Shown: one piece after another, positions 182 to 27,089 of the stretch
Position numbering within the stretch: the first letter of the stretch is position 1
Layout: each line of letters starts with the position of its first letter
From: a virus
IMG/VR virus record: IMGVR_UViG_3300033150_002012
Coordinates: 1-33,967 of that record
DNA: 33,967 bases
Direction: 5' to 3' (one strand)
Made by a program: the position numbers and the translations under genes
The notes under the pieces: generated by a model
What the model was told of the DNA's origin: nothing
The model's database searches: none
The model's input: only the letters and a program-made list of their open reading frames with translations

Positions 182-520
182 ATGAGAGTTTATAAAAAAG
201 TTGAAATTAGTGCAGCTCATTCTTTAAGAGGATATAAAGGCAAATGCAAAAACCTGCACGGGCATAATTACATAATTGAAGTTTGGCTTGAAGGTGAAAT
301 GGATAAAGATACAAAGATGCTTTTTGATTTTAGCAAGATAAAAAAGAAAATAGAAGTGTTTGACCATAAGAACCTTAATGAGTTTTTCAGCAATCCAACA
401 GCTGAAGTATTGGCAAGATTTTTAGCAGAAAGTTTTATCTCAATGCCAAGAATAAGAAAAGCAAAAGTAAGAGTTTGGGAGGATAGTAATAGCTATGCGG
501 AGGAAGAACTATGCAAGTAG
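182..520 (+). CDS. queD: 6-carboxytetrahydropterin synthase (QueD)
   Basis: This enzyme converts 7,8-dihydroneopterin triphosphate to 6-carboxy-5,6,7,8-tetrahydropterin, the second step of preQ0 synthesis after FolE. The 112-residue protein has the family's zinc and catalytic signature: His13 (SAAH), then Cys22-x3-His26-Gly-His28 (CKNLHGH). It also has DF at 49-50, Asp61-His62 (DHKNLNE), NPTAE at 71-75 and a C-terminal VWED with Glu100. The length is typical for QueD. The ATG at 182 follows a strong GGAGGAGG site. It overlaps queE by 10 bases and heads a folE/queD/queE/queC/dpdA cluster, so in this context it serves DNA rather than tRNA modification (inference). Confidence 0.93.
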   Translation: MRVYKKVEISAAHSLRGYKGKCKNLHGHNYIIEVWLEGEMDKDTKMLFDFSKIKKKIEVFDHKNLNEFFSNPTAEVLARFLAESFISMPRIRKAKVRVWEDSNSYAEEELCK

Positions 521-1164
521 TTGAAATATTTGAAAGCATACAAGGAGAAGGAAAATATGCAGGAACTCCAGCTTTGTTTATAAGGTTAGCTGGATGTAAT
601 AGGAGATGTCCTTATTGTGATTCAAAATATGCGCTCAAAGGAAAAGCCAAGAATATTGATGCTTCAGTATTAGCAGAACAGCTTACTCATTCTAATTTAA
701 AAATAGTTGTTTTCACCGGAGGAGAACCTTTGCTTCAGTTTGATGAGATAAAAACTTTAATATTAGATTATGTAACAAATTGGAATTCTAATTGGAAAGA
801 ATTTCATTTAGAAACAAATGGTGATTTGCTTTTAAAGGATAATAGAATAGATTTAAATAAAGCTGTTTTGTTTAGCCATATTGAAGTAAGTCCAAAAGAA
901 AAGAAAGTAGCAAAAGCAATTTATAAATCCTTAAAAGATATGCCTCATTTGAAAGAAAAAATAACTATTAAGGTAGTTACAGATATGCGAAAGGTAGGAA
1001 GAGATATGCTCAAGTATGCGGATATTGTTATGCCTTTAACTACTTTTGATGAAGAAAAAGATAGAAAAATAGCACAGAAAGTATGGAATTATTGTGTTAA
1101 GCATAATAAAAAATTTGGAGCAAGGTTGCATATTTACATATGGGGAAGGAGGCGAAGCATATGA
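511..1164 (+). CDS. queE: 7-carboxy-7-deazaguanine synthase (QueE), radical SAM
   Basis: QueE is a radical S-adenosylmethionine enzyme that contracts 6-carboxytetrahydropterin to 7-carboxy-7-deazaguanine. The 217-residue protein begins with the diagnostic EIFESIQGEG. It carries the 4Fe-4S cluster motif C29-x3-C33-x2-C36 (GCNRRCPYC), the SAM-binding FTGGEPLLQ near 69-77, and LETNG near 111. It ends with the family's RLH...WG motif just before the stop. Start and stop overlap queD and folE respectively (ATGA at 1161-1164), indicating translational coupling. Confidence 0.95.
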   Translation: MQVVEIFESIQGEGKYAGTPALFIRLAGCNRRCPYCDSKYALKGKAKNIDASVLAEQLTHSNLKIVVFTGGEPLLQFDEIKTLILDYVTNWNSNWKEFHLETNGDLLLKDNRIDLNKAVLFSHIEVSPKEKKVAKAIYKSLKDMPHLKEKITIKVVTDMRKVGRDMLKYADIVMPLTTFDEEKDRKIAQKVWNYCVKHNKKFGARLHIYIWGRRRSI

Positions 1165-1682
1165 AAGGAATGAGTTTTCCAGATAGTTTTTTTAACAAAG
1201 AGGAGTTGGAAAATACTCCAAGAAGAATAAGAAAATTTCAAAGAGAGCTGGAAAAGTTGAGAGATTTCAAATTCACAGTATTTGAAAATCCAAATTATGA
1301 CCAGCTAATAGTGTTAAAAGATATAGATTTTTGCTCTTTTTGTTCGCATCATTTACTTCCTTTTTTTGGAAAAGCGCATATAGGATACTTGCCAGATAAG
1401 AAAATATGCGGAGTAAGTAAGTTAGCAAGAGCAGTAGATAAGTTCGCTTCAAAACCACAAGTGCAGGAAAAACTAACCAACGAAATAGCAGATTTTATCT
1501 ATGAAAAGCTTAATCCAAAATTCCTTATGGTAGTAGTTGAAGGAAAACACTTATGTATGCAGATGAGAGGAGTAAAAAAATCCAATGCGGTTATGATAAC
1601 AAGTGCAATAAGAACAAAAGAAGATATAACTTATTGGCATAGTTTGAAAGAAGAGCTATTATCTATTATATTCAAAGGGTGA
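1161..1682 (+). CDS. folE: GTP cyclohydrolase I (FolE)
   Basis: This enzyme opens GTP to 7,8-dihydroneopterin triphosphate, the committed precursor for the QueD reaction. The ATG at 1161 is chosen because it follows GGAAGGAGGCG and forms an ATGA overlap with the queE stop. The in-frame ATG at 1140 lies upstream of that ribosome site. From 1161 the protein is 173 residues. Zinc ligands match type I cyclohydrolase: Cys61 and His64 in CSHHLLPF and Cys132 in GKHLCMQMRG. GVSKLARAVD at 84-93 and the QMRGVKK segment are also typical. It lacks the QueF nitrile-reductase signature. A viral copy raises preQ0 precursor supply without using host enzymes. Confidence 0.95.
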   Translation: MKGMSFPDSFFNKEELENTPRRIRKFQRELEKLRDFKFTVFENPNYDQLIVLKDIDFCSFCSHHLLPFFGKAHIGYLPDKKICGVSKLARAVDKFASKPQVQEKLTNEIADFIYEKLNPKFLMVVVEGKHLCMQMRGVKKSNAVMITSAIRTKEDITYWHSLKEELLSIIFKG

Positions 1683-1686
1683 TTTA

Positions 1687-2256
1687 ATGAAGCATATATT
1701 ATTAGCTTCAGGAGGAGTAGATTCTACTTTAATTTACTTTAAAAAGAAGGAAATTATTGATGATATTCTATACTTTGATTATGGACATCGCTTTAAAGAT
1801 AAGGAACTGAAAGTAATAAAAAAGCTTTATGGAAATAAATGCAAGATAGTAAAGATAGAAGATTTAAAAGTTAGTAAAAATGGCTTTTTTTATGGAAGAA
1901 ACCTTAAATTCTTTATAACTGTTAGGGAACTATATCCAGATGAAGATATTATGGTATATTTTGGGCATAGTGCAGACGATAATTTTAGCGACAATACTCG
2001 CTATTTTTTATACGAAGTTGAAAGAGTTATAAATCATTCATATCCTAACAAAACATTAAGAATAATTACACCATTAGAAAATATGACCAAAAAAGAAATA
2101 TGGAAAGAGCTTCTTTCTATGAACCCCCCTGTTTTGCCTTGGTTTTGCGATTATCCTTATGATGAACCTTGCGGAAAATGTCATTCTTGCAAAGCAATGA
2201 AAGATGCAGGCATATTTGATGAATACCTCGCTATTTTGAGGAGGAACAAACAATGA
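1687..2256 (+). CDS. queC: 7-cyano-7-deazaguanine (preQ0) synthase (QueC)
   Basis: QueC converts 7-carboxy-7-deazaguanine to preQ0 using ATP and ammonia. The 189-residue protein has the PP-loop SGGVDST (8-14) that binds ATP, FDYGHRF where other QueC proteins have a YGQxH-like motif, and RNLKFF at 71-76. The C-terminal zinc site is C154...C162-G-x-C165-x2-C168. The protein is somewhat shorter than the common ~220-residue form but has every core motif. It starts four bases after folE, and its stop overlaps the next start (ATGA at 2253). It completes the four-enzyme GTP-to-preQ0 route. Confidence 0.93.
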   Translation: MKHILLASGGVDSTLIYFKKKEIIDDILYFDYGHRFKDKELKVIKKLYGNKCKIVKIEDLKVSKNGFFYGRNLKFFITVRELYPDEDIMVYFGHSADDNFSDNTRYFLYEVERVINHSYPNKTLRIITPLENMTKKEIWKELLSMNPPVLPWFCDYPYDEPCGKCHSCKAMKDAGIFDEYLAILRRNKQ

Positions 2257-3704
2257 AAGTGTTTATAGTAGTGGGAAAACAAGATTTTGAATTACTTAAA
2301 AAAATAAAACCCCACTATATTCTTTGTTCTTACTATTATGTAGATTCAGTAGAGTTTCTAAAACAAATTAAAAAAATGGGTATAAAAATAATGATGGATA
2401 GCGGAGCTTTTACTCTTGTCTGGGGAAGTGGAGAAAAAACCATAACTCTTAACCATTTCTTCTACAATTATATTTCTTTCCTCAAAAAAACAAAACCAGA
2501 TTGGTGCATAACTTTAGATGTGGGAACAGAAGAAGAACAAAAAAAATACTATCAAAAAATGGTAGAAGAAGGTTTAGAACCTATACCTGTTTTTCACTTA
2601 CAAAAAAACGGTGCAGATAGCAAAGAATTTTTAGAATGGATGTTAGAGAACAGCAAAAGCAAAATTATAGCTTTAGGAGGTTATGCAGGTCTATCAAAAC
2701 AAGGAGTAACCTTTGAAGAAGTATTGCCACGCTTAAAAAAATATGTAAAAATAATCGGTGAAAGAGGCTATAAAGTTCATCTTCTTGGTTTTGGAAAAGT
2801 GGAAAATATCCCTAAAGAGATAAGAAAATATGTTTTTTCTATCGATAGTACTGCTTGGATTGGTGCAAGAAATGGTATTGTTTATTATATTGAAGGAGGA
2901 AAAATTAAACAAATACATTGGAAAGAATTAAGACCTAAAATTTCAGCTTTTGCAAAAAAACATCAAATAGAAAGAAAAGTAGCAGATTTAGTTAAAAAAG
3001 GAGACGGAAATGCCATCAATGAATGGAATATGAAAGTTTGGAAGAAATACCAAGAGCTTATGGATGAAAATTTGGGAGCATCGTCTAATGGCAGGACAGG
3101 TGCCTCCAGAGCACCAGATGCAGGTTCAAATCCTGCTGCTCCCACAAATTCGCACACAAAGATTGTTCCATCTGTTTTAGAAAACAAGAAGGATAGGTTT
3201 GGCAGAGATGTTAATTCATATAGGTTTAACGCAGTAAAGCACGGATTGTATGCTAAAAAATTAAGAGGTTTATTGTGTGATTATTGCCCAATTAGTGAAA
3301 AATGTCCTAACTTTCAAGAAGGAGCTATATGTTATTATGAAAAAAGCTGGAGAAGATTAGGAAATACAAGGGATAGGAAAACTTTATTAAAAATGTTAGA
3401 TGAGCTAATAAAAGATGCTTGGTATAGATGGAATAGAGCGAGAGCATTTCAGGATGCAGAAGGAGGGTATGAAGATAAGAGCGTATTACAGTTAGAGAAG
3501 CATTTAGCACAATTAGTAGAGCTAAAAGATAAGTTAGAGCATCCAGAGAGATATAATCCAAACCTAAGTATAAGTATGCAGAAGCAACAAAATCTATACA
3601 TAACACAAAACATATTTGCAGATTTTGAGGAAAAGCTTAAAAAATACGAAGAAGTGATGAAAAAGTGGAGATTGCAGAAAGGTTTAAGCTTCCAGAAGGA
3701 GTAG
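2253..3704 (+). CDS. dpdA: DpdA-like DNA 7-deazaguanine transglycosylase read through a tRNA into a small-terminase domain
   Basis: The uninterrupted 483-codon frame has three parts. Residues 1-270 resemble the TGT/DpdA family, which swaps guanine in DNA for preQ0: MMDSGAF with candidate nucleophile Asp49, TLDV with Asp89, PVFHL (His115), LGGYAG (141-146), HLLGFG (176-181) and SIDSTAW (Asp198). Residues 275-297 are simply the translation of the embedded tRNA (SSNGRTGAS...GSNPAAPT). Residues about 305-483 look like a small terminase: AVKHGLYAKKL (327-337), four cysteines (342, 345, 351, 360) and a helical C-terminus. No in-frame ATG, GTG or TTG lies between the tRNA and the KHGLYA motif; the nearest upstream are ATG 3060 and TTG 3072. 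The terminase part is therefore a fusion, a product started before the tRNA, or a gene with a rare start such as ATT 3162. Confidence 0.75.
   Translation: MKVFIVVGKQDFELLKKIKPHYILCSYYYVDSVEFLKQIKKMGIKIMMDSGAFTLVWGSGEKTITLNHFFYNYISFLKKTKPDWCITLDVGTEEEQKKYYQKMVEEGLEPIPVFHLQKNGADSKEFLEWMLENSKSKIIALGGYAGLSKQGVTFEEVLPRLKKYVKIIGERGYKVHLLGFGKVENIPKEIRKYVFSIDSTAWIGARNGIVYYIEGGKIKQIHWKELRPKISAFAKKHQIERKVADLVKKGDGNAINEWNMKVWKKYQELMDENLGASSNGRTGASRAPDAGSNPAAPTNSHTKIVPSVLENKKDRFGRDVNSYRFNAVKHGLYAKKLRGLLCDYCPISEKCPNFQEGAICYYEKSWRRLGNTRDRKTLLKMLDELIKDAWYRWNRARAFQDAEGGYEDKSVLQLEKHLAQLVELKDKLEHPERYNPNLSISMQKQQNLYITQNIFADFEEKLKKYEEVMKKWRLQKGLSFQKE
3074..3144 (+). tRNA. tRNA-Trp (anticodon CCA), inside a coding frame
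   Basis: The sequence folds into a complete cloverleaf. The acceptor is GGGAGCA (3074-3080) paired perfectly with TGCTCCC (3137-3143). The D arm is GTCT/GGAC around AATGGCA (G18 G19 present). The anticodon stem GGTGC/GCACC encloses loop CTCCAGA with U33 and anticodon CCA at 3106-3108. The variable loop is AGAT. The T arm GCAGG/CCTGC has loop TTCAAAT. The discriminator is A73 and the 3' CCA is not encoded. Position 15 is A with U48, so it is not a G15 archaeosine substrate. It lies wholly inside the dpdA-terminase frame. It could be a functional viral tRNA or a remnant of recombination at a host tRNA gene. Confidence 0.92.
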
Positions 3705-4996
3705 AACAATGGCAGGAGAAAGGTTGGAAATTAATAGAAAAAACGCCGGATGCAGTAGCGTTCAGTATTTTTATGCTTGAATTAGAGCCATTTGATTATC
3801 AGATTGATTTTTTATTGGATAATAGTAAGAGGCAAATATTTGTAGCAGGCAGGCAAGTTGGAAAAACTACAATGACAGCGATTAAAGCCTTATTTTTCGC
3901 TTTGAAGAATAAAGGAGTGTTAGTTTTAACTTTAGCTCCGACATTTAGGCAAGCAAGTATTTTGTTTGATAGGATAAGGGAGATGATTTTAAGAAATCCT
4001 TTGCTTATGGCATTAGTTGAAAGAATGACGCAAACAATGGTGTTTTTTAAGAATGGAAGTAGAATATTTTGCTTGCCTTCAGGACATACCGGAGAAACAG
4101 TCAGAGGCTATCCTGCTGATATGGTTATTATAGATGAAGCGGCTTATGTTCCAGATGAAGTATTTGTAGCAATAGAGCCAAGTTTGACAACAACACACGG
4201 TTGGCTATTATTTTTAGGAACACCGGCAGGAAAGATTGGAAGATTTTGGGAAGCTTGGAATTCAGAGCATTTCAGCAAGCACCACGCAAAAACAGAAGAT
4301 AATCCATTAGCAAGTAAGGATTTTATAGAGGAGCGAAGAAAGAGTTTAACAGAAGTTCAGTTTGCACAGGAATTTTTAGGAGAATTTGCAGAAGAAGTAG
4401 ATGTATTCTTTCCATATCGTTTGGTAAAGCCGTTAATGGTATTAGAGCCTAAAGAAGAAGTAGAAGAAGGATGGGATTATTGTTTGGGAGTAGATGTAGC
4501 AAGATATGGAACAGATGAAACTGCTTATGTTATTGTGAGAACGCAAGATTATGAAAATTGGCAAATGGTGAATTACATTACAACAAAGAAAAAGCCATTA
4601 ACCGATGTAATGGGCAGAATAAAGGATTTGCATAAAAAGTGGAATTTCAGAAGCATAGTGATAGATGAAACAGGAGGATTAGGAGCAGGGGTAGTGGATA
4701 AGCTAAAAGAAGATGGTTTGCCAATTGAAGGATTTACTTTTTCGCCATCAGATAGGGAGAAGATGTATAATAACTTAAAGTGGTTGTTGGAAGATAAGAA
4801 AGTGCTTTTATTGAATGATATTAAATTATTAAACCAATTCCAGAGTTTAAGGTATGAATACACTTCAGCAGGAAGGTTAAAAATAATCAAGGACGAGAGA
4901 GGACACGAAGATATAGTAGATGCGTTAGGAATAGCAGTTTATAGGAAGGTAGAAAAATGGACAGTTTTAGAGGATAAGGAAGGAGTAGTTTTGTAA
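3665..4996 (+). CDS. terL: Terminase large subunit
   Basis: This is the ATPase and nuclease motor that cuts and packages viral DNA through the portal. The protein has 443 residues from a GTG start and overlaps the preceding frame by 40 bases, a usual terS/terL arrangement. The ATPase half shows Walker A AGRQVGKTT (61-69), Walker B MVIIDE (153-158) and motif III LFLGTPAG (182-189). The RNase H-like nuclease half shows acidic residues in GVDVAR (Asp277), VIDETGGLG (Asp334) and GHEDIVDA (Asp416/Asp419). All motifs are intact. It is followed by a new promoter. Confidence 0.95.
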   Translation: MEIAERFKLPEGVEQWQEKGWKLIEKTPDAVAFSIFMLELEPFDYQIDFLLDNSKRQIFVAGRQVGKTTMTAIKALFFALKNKGVLVLTLAPTFRQASILFDRIREMILRNPLLMALVERMTQTMVFFKNGSRIFCLPSGHTGETVRGYPADMVIIDEAAYVPDEVFVAIEPSLTTTHGWLLFLGTPAGKIGRFWEAWNSEHFSKHHAKTEDNPLASKDFIEERRKSLTEVQFAQEFLGEFAEEVDVFFPYRLVKPLMVLEPKEEVEEGWDYCLGVDVARYGTDETAYVIVRTQDYENWQMVNYITTKKKPLTDVMGRIKDLHKKWNFRSIVIDETGGLGAGVVDKLKEDGLPIEGFTFSPSDREKMYNNLKWLLEDKKVLLLNDIKLLNQFQSLRYEYTSAGRLKIIKDERGHEDIVDALGIAVYRKVEKWTVLEDKEGVVL

Positions 4997-25108: not shown

Positions 25109-25552
25109 ATGAAGATAAAGGTTGCAATTCAAAATAGTGAGCCTTTCCTAATTCTTCGCTATGAAGCAGATGAGTGGGAAACCCTCAAGAAAAAGCTTGA
25201 AAGCTTTGGGTTGGAAAAAGCCCATACAGTGAGGGGATTTGGGTCTAATTCTTTTTGGTTTTATCGTGATAGAAATGCAAATTTATTCCAATACCTGAAA
25301 AAGATTTATTCTATCTCAATTCAAGATGATATAAACGCTTCGCTGATTGGTGGTTATCCACAATTCAATGTTGCCCTATTTCGAGTAATTCCAGATGAGC
25401 AAGGCGAGGTAAAAATCAAGCTAAATAATTTTCTTTCTATTTTGGAGGTAAGTCGTTTAGTGAGTTGGATAGCCACAGGGATAAAAGCTCTACTGGAGAT
25501 AGCAAATGGAGTTGAGTTTGACTTAACACTTAAAAAGAAGGTGATAGAATGA
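25109..25552 (+). CDS. Unknown protein preceding amidoligase
   Basis: The ATG follows a strong AAAGGAGGTCGGG. The 147-residue protein is alpha/beta with no recognised catalytic motif. Notable stretches are TVRGFGSNSFWFYRDRNANLF and a hydrophobic helix SRLVSWIATGIKALLEIANG near 115-134. Its stop overlaps the amidoligase start (ATGA), so it is probably co-translated with the amidoligase and glutamine amidotransferase and may act with them. Confidence 0.75.
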   Translation: MKIKVAIQNSEPFLILRYEADEWETLKKKLESFGLEKAHTVRGFGSNSFWFYRDRNANLFQYLKKIYSISIQDDINASLIGGYPQFNVALFRVIPDEQGEVKIKLNNFLSILEVSRLVSWIATGIKALLEIANGVEFDLTLKKKVIE

Positions 25553-26313
25553 GGAGCAAGTATATCCAGAGCGTAGGAATAGAGCTTGAGGGAGGAATTA
25601 ATAACGATGACCTCAAAAAAGTTTACAATTGGTTGGAAAGGAACAAGCTTAAAAAGTATTTTTCAGAAGGTCCCGATGGTAGCATTTCAGGGCTTGATGC
25701 AGATATTTACATTGAATTGAAGTTTTGGCAAAATTTGAAGGATATAGATAATTTATTTGAATTTTTGAAAATTGTTTATAATAATGGTTTTGTAACTAAC
25801 AGAAGTTGCGGATTTCACGTCCATTTAAGATTAAAGAATATTGAACATTGGAAGATTTTTTCTTATAGGCGGTTTTTCAGAGAGTTCGTAAGAGAATACA
25901 AAAAATCTTTCAAGAGTGATAAATACTTGCAGCGACTAACAAATGAATACTGCAAAGCTATTTGGAGAGAAAAGGACATTAAAGAGCAAATAAACAACAC
26001 CTATAAAGTAAGTGCAAGGTATAGAGCGATAAACCTCAATGCTGTAAATCTTTATGAAACAGTTGAGATAAGAATAATGCCTTATCAAAGCACTGCAAAC
26101 GAAGCTATAAAATCGCTTAAATGGATAATAAAAACAACACATAAATTGTTCAGAAAGTATAACAAAAAGGCATTGTATGTGAAAAATTATTCTTTTGATG
26201 AAATGTTAGAAGAATACAATAGAGAAGTGAGGTGTTTCAATCCTTCAAATGAGATTGAGTATTATGAAGATATAATCAATAAAAAAATAGAAATAGAGGT
26301 AGGAGGTTGGTAA
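25549..26313 (+). CDS. Phage-type amidoligase (COOH-NH2 ligase, glutamine-synthetase-like fold)
   Basis: The 254-residue protein has the motif string of the phage amidoligase family: GIELEGG (10-16), PDGSI (42-46), YIELKF (54-59), SCGFHVHLRL (87-95 region) and RAINLNAVNLYETVEIRIMPYQ (159-180). These ATP-dependent enzymes join a carboxyl group to an amine. Their gene neighbourhoods often include a class II glutamine amidotransferase, exactly as here, where the next gene is one. Proposed roles for such pairs are peptide tagging or modification of cell-surface or small-molecule targets; the substrate here is unknown. Confidence 0.8.
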   Translation: MRSKYIQSVGIELEGGINNDDLKKVYNWLERNKLKKYFSEGPDGSISGLDADIYIELKFWQNLKDIDNLFEFLKIVYNNGFVTNRSCGFHVHLRLKNIEHWKIFSYRRFFREFVREYKKSFKSDKYLQRLTNEYCKAIWREKDIKEQINNTYKVSARYRAINLNAVNLYETVEIRIMPYQSTANEAIKSLKWIIKTTHKLFRKYNKKALYVKNYSFDEMLEEYNREVRCFNPSNEIEYYEDIINKKIEIEVGGW

Positions 26314-26315
26314 AG

Positions 26316-27089
26316 ATGTGCCGATTGGGTTTTTTCAGCTTGAAAGAAGAAAAGGATTTAACGGATAAAGTGAGGTTGTTTACAACCTACTTTAGCCAAA
26401 GCAATCCACAGGGAACAGGGGTTGCTTGGTTTAATAGCAAGCTGGAAGTAGAAAAAGCTCCAGAGAATGCAGTAGTTTTCTGGCTAAGGAAAAACAAGTT
26501 ACAGATTAAAACAGATACAGTTATATGGCATACGAGGTTTGCAACGAATGGAAGTGTTAAGTGGAAAAACACACACCCGTTTTGGGTTGGCAGTATTGCA
26601 ATGGTGCATAATGGCGTTTTGAGTAATTACTATGATGCAAAACGAGAGCTTGAAGAAAGGGGGGCAAAGTTTCACAGCGATACAGATAGTGAGGTTCTTT
26701 TGTGGGCTTATGTTTTTGAGAAAGAAAACTTTATTAAGTATTTAAGGAAAAAAGAAGTAGGAGGCACAGCAACAGTTCTTATAATGAAAGGCAGAACAAT
26801 ATTAGCATATACAAATAATAAGGCATTGGTAATTTACAAAGCCAGCAATGGTTATGTTGGAGCAAGTGAAAATGTGTTTGGTGATTATTCAGTAAGGCAA
26901 ATCAAGGTAAAGCCACATAGACTTTATTTCTTTAAGAAAGGAAATTTGCTTTCAGTAAAGAAGGTAGGTAGTTTGAAGTGGGAAAGTTGTTACAATAGGG
27001 AGTTTCGTTATAGTAATTGGAATTGGTCTTATCAAACCAAGATAGATGATGCTTATGGATATGTATATCCCACAGGAGGTGTTAGATAA
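26316..27089 (+). CDS. Class II glutamine amidotransferase (Ntn-hydrolase)
   Basis: The ATG at 26316 is chosen because Cys must follow Met; an in-frame TTG at 26307 would bury it. After Met removal Cys2 becomes the N-terminal nucleophile. Conserved features are QGTGVAW (32-38), WHTRFATNGS with Arg74 (71-80), HNGVLSNY (98-105) and SDTDSE (121-126), together a complete glutaminase site of 257 residues. It releases ammonia from glutamine. The likely partner is the adjacent amidoligase. An alternative is QueC or preQ0-DNA, since GAT-QueC fusions make archaeosine-type bases. Confidence 0.85.
   Translation: MCRLGFFSLKEEKDLTDKVRLFTTYFSQSNPQGTGVAWFNSKLEVEKAPENAVVFWLRKNKLQIKTDTVIWHTRFATNGSVKWKNTHPFWVGSIAMVHNGVLSNYYDAKRELEERGAKFHSDTDSEVLLWAYVFEKENFIKYLRKKEVGGTATVLIMKGRTILAYTNNKALVIYKASNGYVGASENVFGDYSVRQIKVKPHRLYFFKKGNLLSVKKVGSLKWESCYNREFRYSNWNWSYQTKIDDAYGYVYPTGGVR

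What the first reader, a model, noticed from the sequence alone, without database searches (positions are those of the whole stretch)
2253..3704. A complete tRNA-Trp sits in frame between a DNA-base transglycosylase and the small terminase
The reading frame is open from the DpdA-like domain, through a perfect 71-nt tRNA (3074-3144), into a small-terminase-like domain. No ATG, GTG or TTG lies in frame between the tRNA and the KHGLYA motif. If the tRNA is processed from this transcript, the dpdA mRNA loses its stop codon and the terminase message loses every standard start. The virus must therefore make a fused protein, use a rare start (ATT 3162), or choose between tRNA and protein from one RNA. 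That could link base modification, packaging and tRNA supply. I know of no described case.
Basis: partly seen in the sequence, partly recalled or inferred. Interest (0 to 1): 0.88.

Follow-up and report, generated by a model that had tools for sequence, protein, structure and literature searches.

The report
tRNA gene inside a viral protein gene
In an uncultivated virus that probably infects tiny DPANN archaea, a complete tryptophan tRNA gene lies in frame inside the gene for a DNA-base-modifying enzyme joined to a packaging-type domain, so one stretch of RNA can be read either as protein or as tRNA, but not as both from one copy.

Summary
A full-scoring tRNA-Trp(CCA) lies at 3074-3144 inside one open frame, 2253-3704. 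No ATG, GTG or TTG occurs in frame between the tRNA and KHGLYA.

The tRNA looks real. It carries archaeal Trp identity (G1-C72, A73). Its best full-length matches are tRNA-Trp genes of the DPANN phylum that also holds relatives of this virus's capsid protein. The virus uses about twice the Trp of genomes from that phylum.

The two-gene picture needs revising. DpdA joined to this C-terminal domain is a known protein family (phrog_887). It occurs as one ORF without a tRNA in Streptomyces phages and in three IMG/VR viruses, where it abuts TerL. The window's linker is the same length as theirs (78 against 79-80 residues). The tRNA starts exactly where the DpdA fold ends, and its codons fall in a predicted disordered linker.

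Best reading: uncut mRNA gives a DpdA-TerS-like fusion; cut mRNA gives tRNA-Trp. The partition itself is inferred. The DpdA tree suggests the fusion arose more than once, so the order of events is open. TerS function of the domain is likely, not proven. I found no described precedent.

The parts
2253..3071 (+). DpdA-like DNA 7-deazaguanine transglycosylase domain (residues 1-273), TGT fold
   Evidence: phrog_887 E 7e-22 for this part alone; AlphaFold model confident, best PDB match ArcTGT 1iq8, E 4e-7; Asp of the DSG motif (D49) and D89 invariant in 20 relatives
3072..3146 (+). Codons 274-298 of the ORF, start of the disordered linker, read across the tRNA
   Evidence: frame; residues 275-369 pLDDT < 50
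3074..3144 (+). tRNA-Trp, anticodon CCA, 71 nt, no intron, no encoded CCA; G1-C72 and A73 (archaeal Trp identity)
   Evidence: ARAGORN, Rfam RF00005 66.2 bits, alignment with DPANN tRNA-Trp genes
3147..3701 (+). C-terminal part with the TerS-like domain: KHGLYA, C-x2-C...K-C...C cluster, GG-x-x-D motif, long helices
   Evidence: phrog_887 E 3e-9 and phrog_6902 (terminase small subunit) E 0.013; conserved with 9 other fusions; HMM match to Gordonia Amore2 gp10, the gene before terminase
3273..3275 (+). In-frame TTG one codon before the Cys cluster, with AGAGG 4 nt upstream: the only plausible separate start for the second part (weak)
   Evidence: sequence
3665..4996 (+). Terminase large subunit, overlapping the 3' end of the fusion ORF
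   Evidence: PF03237 E 5e-17 and PF17289; closest characterised relative is Halogranum tailed virus 1, 38%
182..2256 (+). preQ0 pathway genes queD, queE, folE, queC in one tight run leading into dpdA
   Evidence: Pfam PTPS, Radical_SAM, GTP_cyclohydroI, QueC; coordinates

Best explanation
The ORF 2253-3704 codes for one fusion protein: an N-terminal DpdA enzyme that puts a preQ0-type base into viral DNA, a disordered linker, and a C-terminal TerS-like domain placed directly before TerL. A working tRNA-Trp occupies the 5' part of the linker, so the region has two readings on one strand. Uncut mRNA is translated straight through and gives the fusion. When host RNase P and tRNase Z cut out the tRNA, that copy gives tRNA-Trp, a dpdA fragment without stop codon, and a downstream fragment that starts inside the linker. 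tRNA supply is thus bought at the cost of fusion mRNA, in a virus rich in Trp codons. Shown: the tRNA, the open frame, fusion homologues without a tRNA, linker position and length, archaeal Trp identity. Inferred: translation through the tRNA, excision, charging, and the trade-off.
For: tRNA intact and full-scoring. Same DpdA+domain architecture in one ORF without tRNA in L005, L006, L007 (next to TerL) and in Streptomyces phages and their IMG/VR relatives. Linker 78 aa here, 79-80 in L005-L007. The DpdA domain's last helix ends at residue 273 and the tRNA starts in codon 274; residues 275-369 predicted disordered. No close ATG/GTG/TTG for a separate second protein. tRNA matches DPANN tRNA-Trp genes at 75-76% over all 71 nt; capsid relatives lie in two genomes of that phylum. 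Archaeal RNase P RNA found in 132 of 148 genomes of the phylum, so excision is possible there. Trp 1.9% of viral codons, 0.6-1.1% in sampled genomes of the phylum. The mRNA context still folds the cloverleaf as minimum-energy structure. No TATA-like element above background 22-46 nt before the tRNA, which favours the shared transcript.
Against: No expression, processing or proteomic data. No second virus with a tRNA at this junction was found. A tree of DpdA domains rejects window plus L005-L007 as one clade (p-AU 0.0025, long branches), so this fusion may be a separate and perhaps recent event in which an intergenic tRNA became coding. Split dpdA + domain pairs exist. Related viruses mostly have raised Trp content (0.9-1.9%) with no Trp tRNA in the stretches held.
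Confidence: 0.6

Rival explanations
1. Two proteins, no fusion: dpdA and the TerS-like protein are made separately. The first ends as a stopless product on cut mRNA, and the second starts at TTG 3273, ATT 3162 or another non-standard start, perhaps after tRNA excision.
For: TTG 3273 has AGAGG 4 nt upstream and would give M-CDYC, the start of the conserved core. Split gene pairs exist in BS162P1 and MT835482. Relatives such as L057, L080 and L070 have a separate TerS before TerL.
Against: The start is weak, with short spacing, and would drop KHGLYA. Standalone versions carry about 95-110 residues before the Cys cluster. A stopless DpdA would load ribosome rescue. Fusions are found in at least two other virus groups.
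Confidence: 0.15
2. Protein only: the tRNA is an insert or relic tolerated because it reads as a good flexible linker; no tRNA is matured from it.
For: Its codons read as small, flexible residues (G, A, S, N, P) and fall in a predicted disordered region. Excision would destroy the message of an enzyme likely needed for protection.
Against: All stems pair, the score is far above threshold and Trp identity bases are kept; about 75% identity to cellular tRNA-Trp argues for long divergence with the fold intact, not a fresh copy.
Confidence: 0.17
3. Assembly or sequencing artefact: a misjoin at a host tRNA or an indel created the continuous frame.
For: Single metagenomic record with no second copy found.
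Against: Both sides belong to one known fusion family, in one frame, with the linker length of the homologues, and TerL follows as in L005-L007. No genome of the sampled phylum has an identical tRNA.
Confidence: 0.05

Closest known systems
phrog_887 DpdA fusions (Streptomyces phage BRock gp36, GiJojo gp181)
   Same: One protein of about 500 aa: DpdA domain, variable linker, Cys-cluster helical C-terminal domain; one profile covers residues 15-468 of the window protein
   Different: No tRNA in the linker; in BRock the gene lies about 70 kb from TerL; DpdA domains only distantly related
IMG/VR viruses L005, L006, L007
   Same: Fusion of 461-465 aa immediately before TerL, linker of 79-80 aa
   Different: No tRNA; different TerL; DpdA tree does not place them with the window
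Split pair dpdA + domain gene in Bacteroides phage BS162P1 and MT835482
   Same: Same two domains side by side
   Different: Two genes, each with its own stop and start
Virus-borne tRNA genes (e.g. 29 in BRock)
   Same: Intact tRNA of cellular type carried by a head-tailed virus
   Different: Those mostly lie in tRNA arrays between genes; here the whole tRNA is inside a conserved ORF in frame
SSV-type archaeal viruses with attP inside the integrase gene (from memory, not tested)
   Same: tRNA-derived sequence read as protein in an archaeal virus
   Different: There only part of a tRNA, as an integration site; here a whole tRNA, and no integrase was recognised among the proteins scanned

Membership tests
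tRNA-Trp (archaeal type) | Cloverleaf with all four stems, full-length model match | tested here: met
   66.2 bits, positions 1-71 of RF00005; ARAGORN
tRNA-Trp (archaeal type) | CCA anticodon, A73 and G1-C72 (PMC5370408) | tested here: met
   sequence
tRNA-Trp (archaeal type) | Matured and charged with Trp | not testable with these tools
   needs RNA from infected cells
DpdA / TGT superfamily | TGT-type barrel with conserved Asp residues | tested here: met
   ArcTGT 1iq8 best PDB match, E 4e-7; D49 and D89 invariant; NCBIfam DpdA hit only 21 bits, below its cut-off of 200
DpdA / TGT superfamily | Sits with preQ0 genes | tested here: met
   queD, queE, folE, queC at 182-2256
phrog_887 fusion family | Profile match across both domains in one ORF | tested here: met
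   E 4e-32, residues 15-468 on positions 29-484 of 509
Terminase small subunit | Gene directly before TerL | tested here: met
   overlaps TerL here, next to it in L005-L007; not so in BRock
Terminase small subunit | Profile or fold match to known TerS | tested here: inconclusive
   phrog_6902 in 6 of 10 members, best E 0.008; Amore2 gp10 E 1e-7; no significant Foldseek match, Gordonia phage Jumbo TerS at E 0.5; no Pfam or NCBIfam match
Terminase small subunit | Oligomer that binds viral DNA and TerL | not testable with these tools
   needs protein work

The most novel reading that the evidence does not exclude
A virus uses one RNA segment both as a tRNA and as the linker codons of an important fusion protein. 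Translation through the segment and tRNA excision compete, so ribosome traffic on the modification/packaging message sets how much tRNA-Trp is made, and tRNA maturation in turn cuts DpdA-TerS output.
Probability: 0.35. Interest if true: 0.85.

Novelty: new variant of a known kind. Interest (0 to 1): 0.6.

Why it matters
A whole tRNA inside a conserved ORF, on the same strand and in frame, would be a clear case of one RNA region selected at once as codons and as a folded RNA. Every transcript can be either mRNA or tRNA precursor, which makes competition between translation and tRNA processing directly testable. It also documents a repeated coupling of DNA base modification (DpdA) with a packaging-type domain in one protein, hinting that modification may act at, or be read by, the packaging machine.

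Tried and rejected
Searches with the full window protein and with TerL as single queries found no kin in IMG/VR. The tRNA core as exact DNA pattern found nothing in IMG/VR. Pfam and NCBIfam do not name the second domain. I first took the fusion as ancestral from shared architecture with L005-L007; the DpdA tree argues against one origin, so that claim was dropped. A 4-5 bp pairing of the tRNA flanks shows in the fold, but exact flank pairing at zero offset is nil, so I give it no weight. A tRNA promoter inside dpdA was looked for; nothing above background. Host RNase P loss, as in Nanoarchaeum equitans (PMC3491384), was considered; most genomes of the phylum have the RNA. The DPANN-genome hits of the C-terminal profile (L165-L167) are weak and lie outside clear virus context. 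DpdA acting on its own tRNA at G15 seems unlikely, as position 15 is A. Paper searches for a tRNA inside an ORF found no precedent in the held library.

Full report
Observation. The window holds one tRNA by ARAGORN, tRNA-Trp(CCA) at 3074, and Rfam's tRNA model matches 3074-3144 over its full length at 66.2 bits. The frame 2253-3704 is open through it, 483 codons. In-frame starts after the tRNA are TTG 3246, which is the Leu of KHGLYA, then TTG 3273 and ATG 3393. An open frame through the tRNA is not surprising by itself: two of the three frames of this tRNA lack stops, and shuffles of the 84 nt after it stay open in 7% of cases. What lifts it above chance is that conserved domains lie on both sides in the same frame.

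What the protein is. PHROG family 887, named queuine tRNA-ribosyltransferase, aligns with residues 15-468 in one stretch (E 4e-32), and each half matches its own part of that profile (E 7e-22 and 3e-9). Streptomyces phages BRock and GiJojo carry the same two-part protein of about 500 aa. Three IMG/VR viruses (L005, L006, L007) carry a 461-465 aa version directly before TerL, and further IMG/VR relatives of the Streptomyces type exist. None has a tRNA in the stretch held. The linker between the conserved W and the first Cys is 78 aa in the window and 79-80 aa in L005-L007. AlphaFold on 20 relatives gives a confident domain up to residue 273 and no order from 275 to 369; the best PDB matches are tRNA-guanine transglycosylases, archaeosine TGT first. 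The tRNA therefore begins exactly where the enzyme fold ends.

The second domain. It has KHGLYA, a C-x2-C...K-C...C cluster, a GG-x-x-D motif and long helices. Evidence that it is TerS-like: it lies next to or overlaps TerL here and in L005-L007; phrog_6902 (terminase small subunit) matches 6 of 10 members at best E 0.008; and its profile finds Gordonia phage Amore2 gp10 (E 1e-7 among about 600 sequences), the gene overlapping Amore2's terminase. Against: in BRock the fusion lies about 70 kb from TerL, in BS162P1 the domain is a separate gene beside dpdA with no annotated terminase near, and fold searches are not significant. I call it TerS-like. Relatives of the virus by capsid protein have a different, helix-turn-helix-like small gene in this place (my reading of the sequences), which fits replacement.

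The tRNA and the host. Capsid relatives at 50-68% are common in IMG/VR; a Pacearchaeota genome contig encodes one at 57%, and a second genome of that phylum does too. In 371 genomes of the phylum the best full-length matches of the viral tRNA, 75-76%, are tRNA-Trp genes; in 293 genomes of the Thermoplasmata phylum only three partial matches were found. The tRNA has G1-C72 and A73, which mark archaeal and eukaryotic tRNA-Trp (PMC5370408). The host is thus most likely a DPANN archaeon, by inference. Trp makes up 1.9% of viral codons against 0.6-1.1% in samples of the phylum. Most relatives without a Trp tRNA in the stretches held are also Trp-rich, so this is a motive, not proof.

How it most likely works. 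No TATA-like element above background precedes the tRNA, whereas several cellular tRNA-Trp genes of the phylum show one, so it is probably part of the preQ0-dpdA-terminase transcript. The local mRNA still folds the cloverleaf. RNase P RNA is found in 132 of 148 genomes of the phylum. I infer that each transcript goes one of two ways: read through to the fusion, or cut to tRNA-Trp plus two fragments of no use for the fusion. Translation would unfold the tRNA and so oppose cutting. This partition is the untested part.

History. A tree of 46 DpdA domains separates the window from L005-L007 and from the Streptomyces group; holding them together is rejected (p-AU 0.0025 and 0.008). Branches are long, so this is not final, but it suggests DpdA met this domain more than once. 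Two routes stay open: a tRNA was inserted into an existing linker, or a tRNA between two genes became the linker when stop and start were lost.

Verdict. I found no described precedent in the held papers, which is not proof of absence. It is a new variant of known parts (virus tRNA, DpdA fusion) with an unusual double use of one sequence.

Noticed in passing
L213 (MT835482.1) 2473-4713: The dpdA ORF is 747 aa with an insert of about 420 residues splitting the TGT domain (HMM pieces at 51-235 and 656-725): an intein or homing-endonuclease candidate.
   Followed up: no
window 3187-2963, - strand: Antisense ORF across the tRNA reads GAAGFEPASGALEAP, a familiar type of spurious protein from tRNA antisense strands (from memory).
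   Followed up: no
window 25549-27089: Amidoligase_2 (PF12224) next to a class II glutamine amidotransferase (GATase_6/4) in a viral genome; role unknown, possibly peptide or base tailoring.
   Followed up: no
NC_048650.1 101007-101080: BRock's annotated tRNA-Lys lies inside the annotated CDS gp178 on the same strand; likely a start-site annotation matter, but worth a check as a second overlap.
   Followed up: no
L171 2-6403 and L002 (Hilltopfarm) 202-4627: preQ0 genes and dpdA lie right before the terminase genes in L171 and at the genome's left end, near a ParB-like gene, in mycobacteriophages: the placement recurs.
   Followed up: partly
L165 271-819 (G087): 182-aa protein in a DPANN genome with a Cys cluster like the TerS-like domain, at a contig end.
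   Followed up: partly
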